This document shows positions 46,708 to 56,230 of a stretch of DNA of 56,230 nucleotides, piece by piece. The notes under the pieces were generated by a model. The model was not told the DNA's origin. It saw only the letters and a list, made by a program, of their open reading frames with translations, and searched no databases. A program made the translations under genes and the position numbers. Origin of the DNA: a virus; the IMG/VR virus record IMGVR_UViG_3300043464_001636, positions 1 through 56,230 of that record, one strand, 5' to 3'. The first letter of the stretch is position 1; every line of letters begins with the position of its first letter.

Positions 46708-48060
46708 TCAAGCGGCCGGCGTGCGGAGGGCGACCACAGGGCCGACCTCGCTCGTCGATCCGAGAGAGTGGTGATTGATGTCGAACCGCATCGTGCCTTG
46801 GAGCAGCAACTGATCCGTGGTGGCGTACACCTGGTCGTACAGCCGCACGGAGAAGTCACGGCGACGGGCATAGATGGACGACAGGCCCATGTTCCCGAAC
46901 AGCACCTTGACCTTGCTGGCGTCGGCGCCCAGGGTGCTGTTCATCACATGCACCACAGAAACCGGATAGCCGAGCCAAGTGTCCGAAGACCCGCCGGCAA
47001 CGGTGTCGGCCGTGTTTCCGCCAGCCGCGTACTTCAGGCGGTCGATCGAGGCAGCCTTGCCGGCCGGCGAGATGTACCACCGAGCGCCCTGACGGGCGTA
47101 GATGGGCAGCTTGCCGATGACGCCGAGGAAATCCTCGATGTCGAGGGTCTCGAAGGCCGTGTTGCCGGCCGCGCCCGTCACAACCGAGGCGGTGTGGTCT
47201 CCACTGTTGATCTTGGACACGATGCCGCGGATGCCGCCGAAATCGGAGGTGCCGTCGCCGAGCCAGCCGCAGAGGTCGATCTTGTAGGCCAGCGACGTTG
47301 CGAATTCTTGGCCAACTGCGTCGGCCAGACCCACCACGCCAGCGGAATCCTCGACCACCTCCGAGCTCATCCGGCAGCTCACGGCCAGCTTCTTGGCCAC
47401 GAGTTGCACGTTGCCGTAGGTCGGCTCGCTCTCGGTGATGCTCGAGCCTTCACCCACGAAGTACGCCGTCGTGCCGGTGAGGCGCTTCGGAATCACCATC
47501 GTGTCGCGGCTCATGCTCACGTTCTCGGCGGTGCCGGGGAACGTGCCGTATGTCTCGACGAGCCGGATCACCCGGTTCGCGAACTCTTCGGGAACCAAGG
47601 CGCCACCGGCAGCGTTGCTGCCTTCGTTCAGGGCGCGGGCCTCGACGCCGTGGTCGCGGCACCACCGCATATCGTCGGCACTCTTGAACACCGTCGCCCG
47701 CAGCCAGCGGCCGCAGCGGTAGGCGCTCTCGACGGCATCGGGGCCGTCGTTGAAGGCCCGAAGCTGGGTGTGATGCGGCAGGATATGCCGGATCTCGAGC
47801 TTCTTCTCTTCGGCAGCCGGGGTAGCAACGGGGGCCGGAGCGGGGGCAGCCCGCTCGACCACAGCCCGAAGTTCGGCTTCCTTGGCGGCGAGCTTCTGCT
47901 CGAACTCGAGGTCGGACTGAACCTTGTCAGCCTCGTCGGTCAGCTTGCGGAGTTCCGCGTTTTGATCTTCCGACCGCTCTTCGCAATCGGCGAGTTCGTT
48001 GAGGCGGGCCGCAATCGCTGCCGCACGATCCTGAAGACGCTTGAGGTTGCTCGCTGCCAT
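46708..48060 (-). CDS. Major capsid protein, HK97 fold
   Basis: 450 residues. Residues 1-90 form the coiled-coil scaffold or delta domain (NLKRLQDRAAAIAARLNELA and on). The remaining part has the HK97 features LVPEEFANRVIRLVETYGTF, VPKRLTGT-like strands, GYPVSVVHVMNSTLG and a late LFGNMGLSSIYARRRDF. The scaffold is presumably removed by the protease encoded two genes upstream. AGGAG precedes the ATG, and a promoter may lie at 48206-48235. Confidence 0.95.
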   Translation of the reverse strand: MAASNLKRLQDRAAAIAARLNELADCEERSEDQNAELRKLTDEADKVQSDLEFEQKLAAKEAELRAVVERAAPAPAPVATPAAEEKKLEIRHILPHHTQLRAFNDGPDAVESAYRCGRWLRATVFKSADDMRWCRDHGVEARALNEGSNAAGGALVPEEFANRVIRLVETYGTFPGTAENVSMSRDTMVIPKRLTGTTAYFVGEGSSITESEPTYGNVQLVAKKLAVSCRMSSEVVEDSAGVVGLADAVGQEFATSLAYKIDLCGWLGDGTSDFGGIRGIVSKINSGDHTASVVTGAAGNTAFETLDIEDFLGVIGKLPIYARQGARWYISPAGKAASIDRLKYAAGGNTADTVAGGSSDTWLGYPVSVVHVMNSTLGADASKVKVLFGNMGLSSIYARRRDFSVRLYDQVYATTDQLLLQGTMRFDINHHSLGSTSEVGPVVALRTPAA

Positions 48061-48236: not shown

Positions 48237-48428
48237 CTAGTCGACGATCCACTCCCTGCCCTCGGACGCCAGCCAATCCGAAAACTCTTCCGGCGTCATC
48301 TCGCTTTTCCATTGCTCGGCGAGTTTCGCAATCTCTTCCTCGAAGGCGTCGAACTCTTCTTTTCCGTAGTGGTTGTTTCGCTGCTCTCTTTCTGGGATGG
48401 AGTCCCAGGTCTTCTTTTTTAAGGGCAT
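48237..48428 (-). CDS. Small acidic protein before the capsid gene
   Basis: 63 residues, mostly helical, acidic (MPLKKKTWDSIPEREQRNNH, then FEEEIAKLAEQWKSEMTPEE). By position it may be a scaffold or capsid-assembly helper, or an antitoxin-like partner of the large upstream ART protein; neither is shown. Confidence 0.6.
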   Translation of the reverse strand: MPLKKKTWDSIPEREQRNNHYGKEEFDAFEEEIAKLAEQWKSEMTPEEFSDWLASEGREWIVD

Positions 48429-48436
48429 GCGGTTTC

Positions 48437-50749
48437 CTATTTCTTCTTTGGCTTTGCCTTGCCAGCGGCAACAAGCGCGTCTTCGTCAACCACCAAGACA
48501 AAAACAGCGCTTGGCTTTTTTGACTGATCCCAAGAGCCGCCCATCAATTTCGTCAAATCATCGTCCCGCACCCTGTCGCCCGGCTTTGCGCTTCCGTTTT
48601 TTACCGCCGGATGGTTTTTATCCAGCAGCCAATAGTGCTCTGACGCTTTGTATTGAGAGGAGGTCGCAGGCGGAATTATAACCTCACTCTCGGCGGCATG
48701 GTGCGGAAGCCTTTTCCCCGTGTCGGCGCCCCTTGTGTTGTTTCTCACTACGACAACGACCGTACCGCTGGGGAAGCTGCTTCCGGATTTTATGGATGAT
48801 TCGATCTCCGACGCTTTGTCGATCTTGCTAAACGAGGCGTGCGTCGGGCTGCCGGGGGCGCTGGGGTATTCGGTATTCCATCTGCCGGTCTTTAGCCACG
48901 TTTTTATCTGCTCTCCAGAAATCGCATCCAGCCGGCGAGTGACTTTGCCGTGGTACTTTGGCAGCTTTGACACGGCGCTTGCGAATGTTTGGGCTTTTTG
49001 GCTATTGGCCACCGCCTGAGCGCCTTGCTTCTCTATGTGGTGAATTTCTTTCCACTGCGACCCTCCCCACGCAAGCGCTTCGTTTCGCTCCTTTGCTGAC
49101 AGGCTGTGATTCCACACCGCGCTTACTGCCGCGTCTTGGTCGCTCGACGACATCATTGACGATGTCTTGCCTGTCGCGACCGAGTTTTTAACGGCCTCGC
49201 TCTTCTGTGAAACAGACTCCACCGCTTTCTTAAGCCCGGCGCCGTTGGCTTCTTGATACCCTTTACCGGCGACGGGCTTGCTCTTGAGCGACTTCTTGTA
49301 CGACTTCTGCCAAGCGGAGAGGCTGTCCAGTCGCTTTGACAGCGTGGCGCGAAGCTCATCTGTCTTGGCGGCCGCAAGGATCTGCTCTTTGCGCTTCAAA
49401 ACCTGCGTGATCTGCGAACTGATCTCTTTGTTGCTGAGAGAGCCAAAAACGCTGGCAGACGCCGAGTTGATCGAGGCGTCTCGAAGGCTGGATATTTCCG
49501 TCACCTCGGGGCCGAATTCCTTGTTTTTGCCTTGAGCGCGGAACGTGAGCGACCCTCCGTTGTCGACGCGAAACACTTTGCCGCCTTTTCCAACGACAAT
49601 GTTGTCGAGGTTCGCGCCCACAACGTCGTAGTTTCCGAGCAGCGCGTCGGCGACAAAATGCTTCTTGATCTTTGCGACTGCCGCTTCGTACTGCTTCGGA
49701 TTTGACGTCTTGAGTTCGCCGAGCGTTTTTCCGTCGATGAATTCCGCGACTTTTGCGGACGTTCCGTCTGCGTTCTTGTGGAGTTGCTGCTTGGGGACAT
49801 CTGCTCCTGCGGCTCGGTACAGATCGTCGGCCTGAGACTCGCTTTCAATGTGGCCCTTTGTCTTCCCAGATTTGATGACGTACTTTTTGCCGCTGGCGTC
49901 GACTGCAAGCTGGGCGCCTGTGGTGCCGCCAAGATTCTTCTCTACCTTGAGCGATGCGGGCGCCGGCGTCGTGTCTGGGTTCTCGACTGCTGCGAGGGCT
50001 TTCTCGTGCTCGTCGCCGACCTTCTTGACCGGCGCTGGCTTGCCCTTCCTTGCCGTGTCGGCTTGGGCGTCAAGCATCGCTTTTTGCTTGGCGGACGCCT
50101 CTTCTGCGGCGTTCTTCTGGGCCTCAGCGAGCGCTTTTGCCTTTGCCTCGTCGATTTCTTGCTTGATGCTCTTGGGCGTTCCGGAGACGGTCAGTTGCTT
50201 TGAAGCCTCTGCCGTCTTCGTCTTCATTGCAGCCTTGGCTTCGTCAAGCTGCTCCTTCACGCTCTTTGGAGTGCCGACGACCTCAAGCTTTTCATTCGCC
50301 TTCTTGACGCGAATCTTCTGGAGCATGGCCTCGCGCTTCTTAGCACGGGCGGCGTCGAGTGCCTGTTTTTCCTCGGCGTCTTTGGACTGCTTCTCCTTCT
50401 TACGAACAGCGGCCTTCTTGCGCGCGGACGAGATCTTTGCGTCCTTGGCAGCGACTTTGAGGGCGGCCGCTTTTGCAGCCAGCGCTTCCTTCGTCGCCGG
50501 GAGGCTTGCCGCTACGGCCTGCTTGCCCTTCTGAGCAAACGACTTCGGAAGATTGGGGCGGCCGTCTTCTTTTGCGCAGTTGTTTCCAACACCGAACCCG
50601 CCAGCGCCGGTCCCGCAGCCGGTCTTGCGGCCGGTCTTTGCCGGCCGCCCTGGCGCGCGCACCTTCTTCTTCTTTTGGGCCTTGCGGCCGCCTCCCATGC
50701 GCGCTCTCGCCTCTGCGATTGCGCGAAGAAGTTCAGCGCGAATGTCCAC
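48437..50749 (-). CDS. Capsid-cluster protein with HipA-like kinase and R-S-E ADP-ribosyltransferase domains
   Basis: 770 residues, GTG start with GGAG. Residues 1-60 are Lys-rich, with CGTGAGGFGVGNNCAKE, a motif I recall near the N-terminus of minor head proteins. Residues 80-250 hold Ala/Lys coiled coil and two copies of GTPKS[VI]K. Residues 270-405 look like a kinase: GGTTG loop, VIK293, E304, AEFIDG, GNYDVVGANLDN (D375, N380, equivalent to the HipA NTDDHLKN site) and VDNGG (D396). Residues 594-710 look like an ART: R605, S639 in THASFSK, and E687/E689 in AAESEVIIPP. Likely packaged and injected; activity is inference. Confidence 0.65.
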   Translation of the reverse strand: MDIRAELLRAIAEARARMGGGRKAQKKKKVRAPGRPAKTGRKTGCGTGAGGFGVGNNCAKEDGRPNLPKSFAQKGKQAVAASLPATKEALAAKAAALKVAAKDAKISSARKKAAVRKKEKQSKDAEEKQALDAARAKKREAMLQKIRVKKANEKLEVVGTPKSVKEQLDEAKAAMKTKTAEASKQLTVSGTPKSIKQEIDEAKAKALAEAQKNAAEEASAKQKAMLDAQADTARKGKPAPVKKVGDEHEKALAAVENPDTTPAPASLKVEKNLGGTTGAQLAVDASGKKYVIKSGKTKGHIESESQADDLYRAAGADVPKQQLHKNADGTSAKVAEFIDGKTLGELKTSNPKQYEAAVAKIKKHFVADALLGNYDVVGANLDNIVVGKGGKVFRVDNGGSLTFRAQGKNKEFGPEVTEISSLRDASINSASASVFGSLSNKEISSQITQVLKRKEQILAAAKTDELRATLSKRLDSLSAWQKSYKKSLKSKPVAGKGYQEANGAGLKKAVESVSQKSEAVKNSVATGKTSSMMSSSDQDAAVSAVWNHSLSAKERNEALAWGGSQWKEIHHIEKQGAQAVANSQKAQTFASAVSKLPKYHGKVTRRLDAISGEQIKTWLKTGRWNTEYPSAPGSPTHASFSKIDKASEIESSIKSGSSFPSGTVVVVVRNNTRGADTGKRLPHHAAESEVIIPPATSSQYKASEHYWLLDKNHPAVKNGSAKPGDRVRDDDLTKLMGGSWDQSKKPSAVFVLVVDEDALVAAGKAKPKKK

Positions 50750-52304
50750 GAGAGAGAGACTCCAGGGTTTTTGCCTTGAGTCGCGCCGCCGCGCTCCGCG
50801 GCTCCTCGTCAGGCTCGCCGATTGCTGAAATCGGGTCTTCCATCGAGAGCTTCTCCTCTGGAATGATCCAGAGCTTGCACAGCCCCTTCTCTTCGATCTG
50901 GCCCTCCACGACGTCGCACGAGCCGCCCTCGTTGAAGAAGACGCAGTTCGAGCACATCATGCCCTGCCCCTGGAACGGGCTTCGCTTCATGTAGTGGGAG
51001 CCGTCTGGGCCTTCCTGCGGCCACATGCCCTCGGTGTCGGCGATGGTGTTCAGCGCCTCGTAGAGGGCGTAGTTTGCAGCGGACAACGAGCCGGCAGTGG
51101 GCTGTGCGTCCATCTCTTCCGCCCTGACCTCGACGGCCTGCTCGTCAACGCTCCGCTCCATTGCGGCAGACTTGCGTTTCGACCAGTTCTTCGCCGGCGT
51201 GCCGCCCCACAGGAGCCACGCCACGAAGCCGGGTTTTTCCTCGCCGGCCTTGTCCCAGCCTGGTGACTTGCTCGCCGTCTCGTGGCGGGCGAACCACGCA
51301 TTCATCTCCTTAACGTGATCCTCGGCCAGCGACTCGCGGCGGGCGATCTTGTTGGCGCGGGCCACGGTCTCGGGCTTGAGGCCGTCGCCAGACTTCCCCT
51401 CTTCGTGCAGACGCAGGCCGCGCTTGGCCGCGGCGGCCATGCCGGCCGTCGGCTTGAGGTCTACGGCCCGCTCGTCTGGCATCGAGTCGATGAACGCAGG
51501 AACCTCGCCCATGACGTTGCTGGCGGCGACGAGTTCCGACATCATTTTGGCCACGAATTCGTCGGTCTCTTCCCAGTAGCCTTCCTCGAACTCGTACTTG
51601 CGGACGAGCACGATCGGATCGCCAGGCTTGGCCTCCATCGGCTCGGAGAGGTATTCGCCAAGCTGGCCCTCTTCCATGACGTATTCGATCTGACCGACGC
51701 CGCCGTCCCAGGCCACGAACGCGCCCTGCGAATACATCGTCGCGGCGGCGCGAGTGTGAACGACGTCGAGGGCGCGGCGGCTCACGAACGACTCAGTGGC
51801 GCTGTAGGCCGGCTTAAGGACCGGCCCGACATCGAAGAGGCCGTCGATCGTGCGAATCTCACGCAACTGCCGGCCGTCGGCTGTGCGACTCCAGGCTTCA
51901 CCGGATCCTTTCACGCGGAACGCGAAGCTCGAGCCTCGCACATCAGAGCGCTCGATGGCTTCAACGACGTCAGCACGAGATTCCGGTGGGTCGATCTCGT
52001 ATCGCAATCCGCGTTCGTCCACGAACAGGCGCAGCGTGCCGGAGGACTCTCGTCCCAGCAAAAACATCGGATCGTGGTTGTAGAGGGCCACGACGTCGGT
52101 GCCGCGCTTCATGACCTCGTCGAACGCGCCTGGGGAGATTCTTTCCACGAACCCGCCCAAGTCCTGCGAGTCGGAATTAAATAATGCCGCATAGCCGCGG
52201 ATGACCGGCTTTTTCTTGCCCGTCTTCTCGCACATGCACCGTTCGACGACCGCCTCGGTCTCGATCAGCCGGCGTTCAACGTCTTCTCGACTCTCTCCGT
52301 CCAT
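50733..52304 (-). CDS. HK97-type prohead protease with long C-terminal extension
   Basis: 523 residues from the ATG at 52304 with AGGAGG. The first 180 residues are the serine protease: RGYAALFNSDSQDLGGFVER, ALYNHDP with H77, and RGSSFAF with the Ser at 125-126. The extension contains GLRLHEEGKSGDGLKPETVA and GFVAWLLWGGTPAKNW, seen in other phage head proteins, and a late CSNCVFFNEGGSCDVVEG cysteine patch. It cleaves scaffold from the capsid protein. Confidence 0.85.
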   Translation of the reverse strand: MDGESREDVERRLIETEAVVERCMCEKTGKKKPVIRGYAALFNSDSQDLGGFVERISPGAFDEVMKRGTDVVALYNHDPMFLLGRESSGTLRLFVDERGLRYEIDPPESRADVVEAIERSDVRGSSFAFRVKGSGEAWSRTADGRQLREIRTIDGLFDVGPVLKPAYSATESFVSRRALDVVHTRAAATMYSQGAFVAWDGGVGQIEYVMEEGQLGEYLSEPMEAKPGDPIVLVRKYEFEEGYWEETDEFVAKMMSELVAASNVMGEVPAFIDSMPDERAVDLKPTAGMAAAAKRGLRLHEEGKSGDGLKPETVARANKIARRESLAEDHVKEMNAWFARHETASKSPGWDKAGEEKPGFVAWLLWGGTPAKNWSKRKSAAMERSVDEQAVEVRAEEMDAQPTAGSLSAANYALYEALNTIADTEGMWPQEGPDGSHYMKRSPFQGQGMMCSNCVFFNEGGSCDVVEGQIEEKGLCKLWIIPEEKLSMEDPISAIGEPDEEPRSAAARLKAKTLESLSRGHSR

Positions 52305-53866
52305 GTTCCCGTAACCTCCTCGTAGGGCTTTCCGCTGCGGTGGCATTCCAGCAGCAGGTCTCGCGTCTCATTCATCCATGCGGCCGCAAACTCGTCTATC
52401 TGTCGGCCTGTAGCCTTCGCGGCGTCGCATAGTTCTGTCTTCATGCGGCCCTCGTGGGCCTCAAGCCACGCGGCCAGCTTGGCCGGCTTCTTGCGACGCT
52501 CGAGGATTCCGTCGGCTTCGATCGACGCCAGCTTTCGCAGCGTCTGGGCGAAGAGCACCTCGGAGGCGCTGCGGGCGGCGTCCACTGGAGGTGGCGGAGC
52601 CTCCTCAGCCTGCGTCGCCTCCGCTTCGAGTGCGGGCGGTGGCTCTTCCTCGGGTGGCACAGGCTCCTCCACTGGCGGCGCCACCACAAACGACTCCAGA
52701 AGGGCCATGTTCACCTGCACGAACCGCTTGTCGCCTTCGTCGATCGGGTTCAGCCCTTCGCTCGTTCTGATCTCATTTATCGAAAGAACGCCAAGCTGCC
52801 AGAGTTCTTTGTAGTAGCTGGCCCTTCCGGCGTTGTCACCGCGCATCAAGCCTCGGACGTCGAACTCTGCAAAGTAGTTCTCGTCGTCCATGATGAGGTC
52901 GCGACGGCAGGCTGATTCCCAGCGGCGCAGCCACGGTACGAGCGAGAACGTCACAAAGTCCAGCCCCTGCTGCTCTACTGAACTGTAGGAACTCTTCGTC
53001 AAATCCCCGATCATGTAGGCCGGCACACGGTAGATGCGAGCTATGTCTTCGACTTGGTAGCGCCTGGTCTCGATGAGCTGGGCAGACTCATTCGTGCCGG
53101 AAAGTTCTTTGACTTTGATGCCGTGCGGGAGGACGGCCGTTCGCCCGTTTTGGTTTGGGCCGCGGTGCATATCCTCCCAGGACTGCCGGAGTCTCTGCGC
53201 AGTCTCAGGCTTCAGCGGCTGATCGCTCTCCAAGACCACCCCAGGGCGCGCGCCGTTGCCGAAGTACGCGCTCGAGTGCAGTTCAGTGGCCCGCGCCAGC
53301 CCGATGGCTTCGCGGGAAAGCATCGTCGGAATGTATCCCTTCACGCCGTCCTGGGTGAGCCACCGCAGGTGAAAGATCTGATCCTGCGTGTACGCGGTCG
53401 GATCCATTTTGTCTGGCTCTTGGTACAGATACCGGAGCCTTCCAGACTTCAGGCGCTCGACTTTCATCCTGCTTGGGTGCAGCGGCCAGAGTTCTGTGAC
53501 GGCGCCAAACTTGCCAGGGCGGATCTCTGCGTAGGCGTTGCCCCACAAAAGAAGCCAGCTTTGCATGAGTTCCCGAAACTCAAACGACGTCATCCAGCCG
53601 TTTGGCTGTTCTGACAGAATTAGATGCAGCGGCATCCCGGCAGCGACTTCTTTGCCGCCAGTCGGGATCCGGTGGAACAGGTTGAATGGAAGCGTCGCGA
53701 CCGACTCCGAGATCACCCGCACGCAGGCCAGAACGGCGCTGCACTGCAGGGCTGTTTCCGGCGTGAGTGCGATGCCAGCGACGGTTTTGCGGTCTTCCGA
53801 CAGTTCCTCGAATACGCGGGAGATGCTCCGCATTTCAACGATGTCTTCGATCGCCGCTTCTTCCAT
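52265..53866 (-). CDS. Portal protein, HK97 family
   Basis: 533 residues, TGATG overlap with terminase. Typical portal pieces: LTPETALQCSAVLACVRVIS, LPFNLFHR, SFEFRELMQSWLLLWGNAYA, IFHLRWLTQDG, RRYQVEDIARIYRVPAYMIG and VEQQGLDFVTFSLVPWLRRW. The C-terminal 140 residues are a Pro/Glu-rich linker (VEEPVPPEEEPPP) and a helical tail. Forms the dodecameric DNA gate at the capsid vertex. Confidence 0.95.
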   Translation of the reverse strand: MEEAAIEDIVEMRSISRVFEELSEDRKTVAGIALTPETALQCSAVLACVRVISESVATLPFNLFHRIPTGGKEVAAGMPLHLILSEQPNGWMTSFEFRELMQSWLLLWGNAYAEIRPGKFGAVTELWPLHPSRMKVERLKSGRLRYLYQEPDKMDPTAYTQDQIFHLRWLTQDGVKGYIPTMLSREAIGLARATELHSSAYFGNGARPGVVLESDQPLKPETAQRLRQSWEDMHRGPNQNGRTAVLPHGIKVKELSGTNESAQLIETRRYQVEDIARIYRVPAYMIGDLTKSSYSSVEQQGLDFVTFSLVPWLRRWESACRRDLIMDDENYFAEFDVRGLMRGDNAGRASYYKELWQLGVLSINEIRTSEGLNPIDEGDKRFVQVNMALLESFVVAPPVEEPVPPEEEPPPALEAEATQAEEAPPPPVDAARSASEVLFAQTLRKLASIEADGILERRKKPAKLAAWLEAHEGRMKTELCDAAKATGRQIDEFAAAWMNETRDLLLECHRSGKPYEEVTGTWTERVEKTLNAG

Positions 53867-55878: not shown

Positions 55879-56055
55879 AGGCCAACATGAAGGCGCTGCA
55901 GGTTATGCACGAAACCGGGGGAGTTACGAACCGGAGCCATTTTTGGCTAAACCCGTGAACGCGTGCGAGACGTTAGCATGCGGTCTGCCGCGGGGGGCGA
56001 AAAAATTGCCCTACCCCCCCTCCCCCGCCGCAAAATTTCGAGCGCGGTTTTCGAG

Positions 56056-56230
56056 GGCATCGAGCCGGCCAGGGCATCGAGCCGGCCAGGGCATCGAGCC
56101 GGCCAGGGCATCGAGCCGGCCAGGGCATCGAGCCGGCCAGGGCGTCGAGCCGGCCAGGGCATCGAGCCGGCCAGGGCATCGAGCCGGCCAGGGCATCGAG
56201 CCGGCCAGGGCATCGAGCCGGCCAGGGCAT
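56056..56230. repeat. Tandem 17-bp repeat array (right end)
   Basis: Ten copies of GGCATCGAGCCGGCCAG (56056-56225), one of them with a single change (GGCGTCG at 56141), and five bases of an eleventh. It runs off the window edge. Same period as both left arrays and with the CGGCCAGG core of the first one. Long ORFs through it are products of the repeat and are not called as genes. Confidence 0.95.

What the first reader, a model, noticed from the sequence alone, without database searches (positions are those of the whole stretch)
48437..50749. Predicted kinase plus ADP-ribosyltransferase effector encoded between prohead protease and capsid genes
One protein carries a HipA/PI-kinase-like core (lysine in VIK293, D375/N380, D396) and an R-S-ExE ADP-ribosyltransferase core (R605, S639, E687/E689). 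It also has a minor-head-like N-terminal motif, and its gene sits inside the head cluster. Phage T4 Alt is a known injected ART, so this could be an injected dual modifier of host proteins. A kinase and ART in one virion protein is, to my knowledge, not well described. A downstream 63-residue gene could be a partner.
Basis: partly seen in the sequence, partly recalled or inferred. Interest (0 to 1): 0.8.

Follow-up and report, generated by a model that had tools for sequence, protein, structure and literature searches.

The report
Phage head-cluster kinase–ADP-ribosyltransferase fusion protein
A phage gene lying among the genes for its capsid encodes one protein with two predicted enzymes, a HipA/CtkA-type protein kinase and a VIP2-type ADP-ribosyltransferase, and it belongs to a widespread, mostly unannotated family of phage head-linked effectors whose rear enzyme and small neighbouring gene are exchanged together.

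Summary
The 770-aa ORF (48437-50749, minus strand) lies between a prohead protease and the major capsid gene and contains both enzyme cores. Residues 255-500 fold with high confidence (pLDDT 94.7) into a HipA/CtkA-like kinase (CtkA Z 14.6, HipA 11.7). Residues 554-770 form a divergent R-S-E ADP-ribosyltransferase: all 50 top structural matches are ARTs, and R605, S639, E687 and E689 are kept. Both domains are under strong purifying selection. At least 549 viral-contig loci carry this kinase domain, often fused to MuF or portal head proteins and, in about a third of sampled proteins, to an ART in the same order. One cultured relative is annotated as particle-associated. The C-terminal effector varies while the kinase stays constant, and a short coupled downstream gene (here 63 aa) changes with the effector, so it is a plausible cognate partner. 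Best reading: a virion-packaged, probably injected dual modifier of host proteins. Injection, catalysis and targets are untested. It is a new variant of the known head-packaged (Alt / MuF / polyvalent) effector theme.

The parts
48437..50749 (-). 770-aa kinase-ART fusion gene
   Evidence: ORF list and translation; syntenic in L002, L003, L013; dN/dS 0.04-0.05 in both enzyme domains against L003
50564..50617 (-). residues 45-62, CGTGAGGFGVGNNCAKEDG-type junction motif
   Evidence: same motif repeats 2-3 times between domains in portal/ART relatives
49970..50554 (-). residues 66-260, Lys/Ala/Glu-rich linker, probably helical (20% K, 24% A)
   Evidence: composition; role not tested
49250..49987 (-). 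residues 255-500, HipA/CtkA-like kinase domain; K293, E304, D375, D382-N383, R394, D396 invariant
   Evidence: AlphaFold2 pLDDT 94.7, pTM 0.90; CtkA Z 14.6, PI4KII alpha 11.9, HipA 11.7; 63-sequence alignment; hhalign with HipA_2
48440..49090 (-). residues 554-770, R-S-E ADP-ribosyltransferase domain (R605, S639, E687, E689)
   Evidence: hhalign to independent ART profile with controls; AlphaFold2 pLDDT 75.5; all 50 listed structural matches are ARTs, best Z 10.9
48237..48428 (-). 63-aa downstream ORF, candidate cognate partner of the C-terminal domain
   Evidence: 92% identical in L003, 52% in L013, diverged homologue in L016, replaced in L017; effector-type covariation of such ORFs
50733..52346 (-). 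prohead protease (Peptidase_S78), upstream neighbour
   Evidence: Pfam 8.6e-37
46708..48060 (-). major capsid protein, downstream neighbour
   Evidence: Pfam Phage_capsid 1.8e-31
52265..53866 (-). portal protein
   Evidence: Pfam 1.4e-101

Best explanation
The protein is a head-packaged phage effector made late with the capsid genes, carried in the virion and most likely delivered into the next host with the DNA. There its kinase phosphorylates and its ART mono-ADP-ribosylates host proteins, to favour early phage takeover or blunt defence. The kinase is the constant core of a family in which the C-terminal effector is exchanged together with a small coupled gene. That small protein probably keeps the effector inactive in the producing cell or escorts it into the head. 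Shown here: both folds and catalytic residues, purifying selection, synteny, head-protein fusions in relatives, effector/small-gene covariation. Inferred: catalysis, packaging of this protein, injection, targets and the partner's role.
For: Kinase fold and invariant catalytic residues. ART fold and R-S-ExE. dN/dS 0.036 for the kinase and 0.051 for the ART. Gene set between protease and capsid, conserved in relatives. Kinase domain fused to MuF in 24 and to portal in 5 of 60 non-redundant viral proteins; all 5 portal fusions also carry the ART. An independent portal-kinase protein heads the BFVD matches. Yersinia phage fHe-Yen8-01 homologue annotated as ART toxin, 'phage particle associated protein'. 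Same kinase-then-ART order in cultured phages, with PF03496 at the C-terminus. In Gordonia phage Sixama the kinase and the ART are separate nearby genes just after the portal.
Against: No MuF or portal domain in this particular protein. No proteomics for this phage; particle association in the Yersinia phage is a depositor's note whose data I could not read. ART model confidence is moderate, and the window protein alone misses the Pfam ART cut-off. Nothing shows kinase activity or injection.
Confidence: 0.6

Rival explanations
1. Cis-regulation: the kinase mainly phosphorylates its own chain or its ART/partner to hold the ART inactive until delivery, and only the ART acts on the host.
For: The kinase is constant while the C-terminal effectors vary (NUDIX, inorganic pyrophosphatase, SNF2, 2H-like, several ART types), as expected of a core that handles whatever effector is attached; kinase 67-68% identical while the C-terminus falls to 18-23%.
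Against: In Gordonia phage Sixama the kinase sits in a protein separate from the ART; no conserved acceptor site identified.
Confidence: 0.2
2. The kinase acts during late infection or in lysogens, for superinfection exclusion or head morphogenesis, and is not an injected effector. This is the reading given for HipA-family kinases of 'Gratiaviridae' by Benler et al. 2021 (PMC8008677).
For: That paper reports HipA-family kinases encoded between portal and capsid genes in five gut phages and argues from late expression; this gene has the same position.
Against: Direct fusion to portal and MuF in related proteins fits packaging; late expression is also what a packaged protein needs.
Confidence: 0.13
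3. One or both domains are catalytically dead and serve as binding or structural modules of the head.
For: ART is divergent, with a roughly 50-residue insertion after the ExE motif.
Against: All catalytic residues are kept in 63 kinases and in the window-clade ARTs; dN/dS 0.04-0.05.
Confidence: 0.07

Closest known systems
CtkA (Helicobacter pylori) / HipA_2 / HipA kinases
   Same: Same fold over 205-213 residues (CtkA Z 14.6; HipA Z 11.7 over 194 residues) and colinear K, E, D, N, D active site with HipA_2 proteins
   Different: About 16% identity in the structure alignment; fused to an ART and set in a phage head cluster; no match to a HipB antitoxin or to the HipA N-terminal domain found
Phage T4 Alt and VIP2-type ARTs
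   Same: R-S-ExE ART fold; head-linked gene; cultured relatives match the Alt-like PHROG 802
   Different: Alt carries no such kinase (own knowledge); the window ART is divergent with a C-terminal insertion, and its packaging is unproven
MuF-toxin and polyvalent proteins (Zhang 2012 PMC3482391; Iyer 2017 PMC5512222; Iyer 2022 PMC9503650)
   Same: Head-linked proteins with exchangeable enzymatic C-termini predicted to be injected; ART fusions to MuF and portal reported
   Different: The polyvalent kinases of Iyer 2017 are described as having a conserved His-Asp pair and lacking the C-terminal subdomain; this family has N-W/Y-D without that His and a HipA/CtkA fold
HipA-family kinase of 'Gratiaviridae' phages (Benler 2021, PMC8008677)
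   Same: HipA-like kinase gene between portal and capsid genes
   Different: No ART, MuF or portal fusion reported in that text; interpreted as superinfection immunity. Sequence relationship not tested here

Membership tests
HipA/CtkA-like kinase superfamily | HipA/PI-kinase-like fold | tested here: met
   Model pLDDT 94.7; CtkA Z 14.6 over 213 residues, PI4KII alpha 11.9, HipA 11.7, actin-fragmin kinase 10.8
HipA/CtkA-like kinase superfamily | Catalytic Lys, Glu, Asp...Asn, metal-binding Asp | tested here: met
   K293, E304, D375, N383, D396 invariant in 63 sequences and colinear with HipA_2
HipA/CtkA-like kinase superfamily | Ser/Thr kinase activity | not testable with these tools
   no assay
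HipBA toxin-antitoxin | HipB-type DNA-binding antitoxin beside the kinase | tested here: not met
   Neighbours are protease and a 63-aa ORF with no Pfam HTH match
VIP2/Alt-type R-S-E ADP-ribosyltransferase | ART fold | tested here: met
   All 50 listed structural matches are ARTs, best Z 10.9; model confidence moderate, pLDDT 75.5
VIP2/Alt-type R-S-E ADP-ribosyltransferase | R, STS-like Ser, ExE residues | tested here: met
   R605, S639, E687/E689 aligned and kept in L003, L013, L015
VIP2/Alt-type R-S-E ADP-ribosyltransferase | Pfam PF03496 score over the curated cut-off | tested here: not met
   No Pfam hit for the window protein; four of five cultured relatives with a PF03496 hit exceed the cut-off
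MuF-type head effector | MuF domain in the same protein | tested here: not met
   Absent here; present in 24 of 60 non-redundant relatives
Head-packaged, injected effector (Alt-like) | Presence in the virion and delivery to the host | not testable with these tools
   Indirect only: head fusions, annotation of Yersinia phage homologue
Polyvalent-protein kinase (Iyer 2017) | His-Asp pair with insert and loss of the C-terminal subdomain | tested here: inconclusive
   No such His in the catalytic loop, but the published alignment could not be read

The most novel reading that the evidence does not exclude
A phage counterpart of polymorphic toxin systems: a constant HipA/CtkA-like kinase, anchored to portal, MuF or other head proteins, forms the delivery or activation core, and each exchangeable C-terminal effector travels with its own small translationally coupled immunity or packaging protein. 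This protein and its 63-aa neighbour are one kinase-ART example.
Probability: 0.35. Interest if true: 0.82.

Novelty: new variant of a known kind. Interest (0 to 1): 0.66.

Why it matters
Phages were known to pack ARTs in their heads, but protein kinases studied in phages are few. If this family works as proposed, hundreds of phages carry a ready-made kinase plus a second enzyme into the cell before any phage gene is expressed. Many members are annotated only as portal, ART or hypothetical protein, so a large set of early host-takeover or counter-defence enzymes is being missed. The matched small genes offer a direct handle: test whether each neutralises or escorts its effector.

Tried and rejected
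Single-sequence searches of Pfam, PHROGs and PDB sequences found nothing, so profiles and structures were needed. A plain hmmsearch of the window ART with the independent ART profile barely beat shuffles (9.7 against 8.6 bits); only profile-profile comparison and structure settled it. N380 as catalytic Asn rejected (variable; N383 invariant). 'Minor-head N-terminal motif' rejected (junction repeat). A first genome-contig scan with the window protein found no relative. The common C-terminal type with RTE / ESTS / GDxENEF motifs looks ART-like by eye, but gave no ART match by profile, Pfam or PDB, so it is not counted as ART. L017's C-terminus is only weakly ART-like (score 29 against a shuffled maximum of 22.7) and is not counted. 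HipA proper aligned to the kinase profile only over the Lys-Glu region; HipA_2 and the structure gave the full match. No paper on fHe-Yen8-01 is held in the library. The literature searches cover only open papers, so the novelty claim is limited by that.

Full report
What is there. The ORF at 48437-50749 (minus) encodes 770 aa, starts with GTG and overlaps the end of the S78 prohead protease gene by 17 bases. The order on this strand is TerL, portal, protease, this gene, a 63-aa ORF, major capsid protein. The same order, with the 63-aa ORF, recurs in IMG/VR contigs L002 (identical), L003 (91% for this protein) and L013 (62%). The protein alone matches nothing in Pfam, PHROGs or PDB sequences.

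Kinase domain. tblastn against phage genomes hit 19 records, all in residues 264-497. An 11-sequence alignment and a 63-sequence alignment show the invariant residues K293, E304, D375, D382-N383, R394, D396, G398 and G399. Among the 63 members, the Pfam families matched most often are HipA_2 (11) and HipA_C (9), with phosphotransferase and actin-fragmin kinase matches behind. Each is weak alone, but together they point to the protein-kinase-like clan. A profile comparison with HipA_2 proteins aligns the Lys, Glu, Asp-Asn and Asp motifs in order, score 55 against a maximum of 26 in 50 shuffles. AlphaFold2 gives pLDDT 94.7 and pTM 0.90. The best structural matches are CtkA (Z 14.6, 213 residues, 3.9 A), PI4KII alpha (11.9), HipA (11.7), HipT (11.3) and actin-fragmin kinase (10.8).

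ART domain. The C-terminal profile of the window clade matches an ART profile built only from other phage proteins (score 60, 95% probability; without the most divergent member 50, 92%). One hundred shuffles reach at most 17, and other parts of the protein at most 22. The merged profile matches solved ARTs such as Certhrax, Vis, CdtA and Vip2 (E down to 2.6e-24); most of its rows are the clear ARTs, so the comparison above is the independent test. The model is of moderate confidence (pLDDT 75.5), but all 50 listed structural matches are ARTs, led by an ART toxin of a toxin/immunity pair (Z 10.9) and Vis (9.7). R605, S639, E687 and E689 sit at the R-S-ExE positions. A roughly 50-residue insertion follows the ExE motif.

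Function is maintained. Against L003, dN/dS is 0.036 for the kinase and 0.051 for the ART.

A wide family. A scan of viral contigs with the kinase profile confirmed 549 loci, of which 80 were kept. A scan of one genome per species gave 37 loci, many in Verrucomicrobia and relatives, with more distant ones in other phyla. In 60 non-redundant viral proteins a MuF domain is fused in 24 and a portal protein in at least 5. An ART of the VIP2/Alt type is found by profile in 16, plus the four members of the window clade. All five portal fusions carry portal, kinase and ART in one chain. Other partners by Pfam are NUDIX, inorganic pyrophosphatase, SNF2 helicase, a 2'-5' RNA ligase-like domain and, weakly, the anti-CBASS protein Acb1. 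Independent evidence comes from BFVD, where the best viral match to the model is a 1201-aa 'phage portal protein' (44% identity) and a protein annotated as ADP ribosyltransferase is also listed. In cultured phages of Pseudomonas, Yersinia, Morganella and Aeromonas the kinase precedes a C-terminal PF03496 domain. The Enterobacter phage protein also matches the local ART profile. The Yersinia record labels the protein and the genes just downstream as particle-associated. In Gordonia phage Sixama the kinase protein follows the portal gene and a separate ART gene lies two genes on.

Exchangeable effector and matched small gene. Within the window clade the kinase stays 67-95% identical, while the C-terminal region drops from 94% (L003) to 60% (L013), 23% (L015) and 18% (L017). 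The 63-aa gene follows the C-terminus: 92% in L003, 52% in L013, a diverged homologue in L016 (hhalign 86%), and an unrelated 50-aa ORF in L017. Across 71 complete proteins, 63 are followed at once by an ORF of at least 40 codons. In 33 the start lies at -4 or -1 to the stop, against 2.2% at random positions. Of 123 pairs with the same small-gene family, 116 share the C-terminal family; no permutation of 2000 reaches this, and the other seven all involve one protein (L020). At kinase identity 0.55-0.7, 49 of 111 same-effector pairs share the small family, against 1 of 41 different-effector pairs. Shared ancestry is therefore not the whole explanation, though it is not fully excluded. The choice of the longest ORF is a crude gene call.

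Mechanism. Shown: folds, residues, selection, synteny, fusions and covariation. Inferred: catalysis, virion packaging of this protein, injection, and the small protein as inhibitor or packaging partner. The annotation of the small gene's counterpart as particle-associated in the Yersinia phage argues for a packaging role at least there. The main rival is that the kinase acts on its own chain to control the ART. Benler et al. 2021 read HipA-family kinases between portal and capsid genes as superinfection immunity; direct fusion to portal and MuF fits packaging better.

Known or new. Head-packaged ARTs, MuF fusions and polyvalent proteins are known. A HipA-like kinase in the head cluster has been reported once in the open literature I could search. 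I found no report of its fusion to portal, MuF and ART, or of the effector-matched small genes. I therefore rate it a new variant of a known kind.

Noticed in passing
L052:8874-9452 and 17 relatives (alignment A8): The most common C-terminal domain attached to the kinase has RTE, ESTS and GDxENEF motifs and matches no Pfam family or solved structure by sequence; it resembles an ART by motif only.
   Followed up: partly
window 50564-50617; L027 residues 806, 1113, 1233; L024 residues 67, 326, 516: A CGTGxGGFxxGNxC motif recurs between domains of these proteins, as if marking module junctions (two conserved Cys).
   Followed up: partly
L004, L005, L009, L010 proteins: Cultured-phage homologues share another inter-domain repeat, roughly GPxxGDTKxGADGxLVFxNGRWHK.
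   Followed up: no
L004, L009, L010 downstream of the kinase-ART gene: A nucleotide phosphatase or NUDIX hydrolase gene lies two genes downstream in Dolphis, ST4 and Mecenats66, which suggests ADP-ribose processing linked to the effector.
   Followed up: no
window 50733-51470: The protease carries a long C-terminal extension matching phrog_2859 and a Cys-rich end (CSNC...C...C) with a weak high-potential iron-sulfur match; an Actinomycetia phage has a gene so annotated beside its kinase protein.
   Followed up: no
window 55947-56230: Overlapping short ORFs made of a repeated PWPARCPGRLDALAGSM unit at the contig end, a tandem repeat or assembly edge.
   Followed up: no
L110:5374-11436: A 2021-aa ORF in a Legionella longbeachae genome contig holds a distant relative (27%) of the kinase domain.
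   Followed up: no
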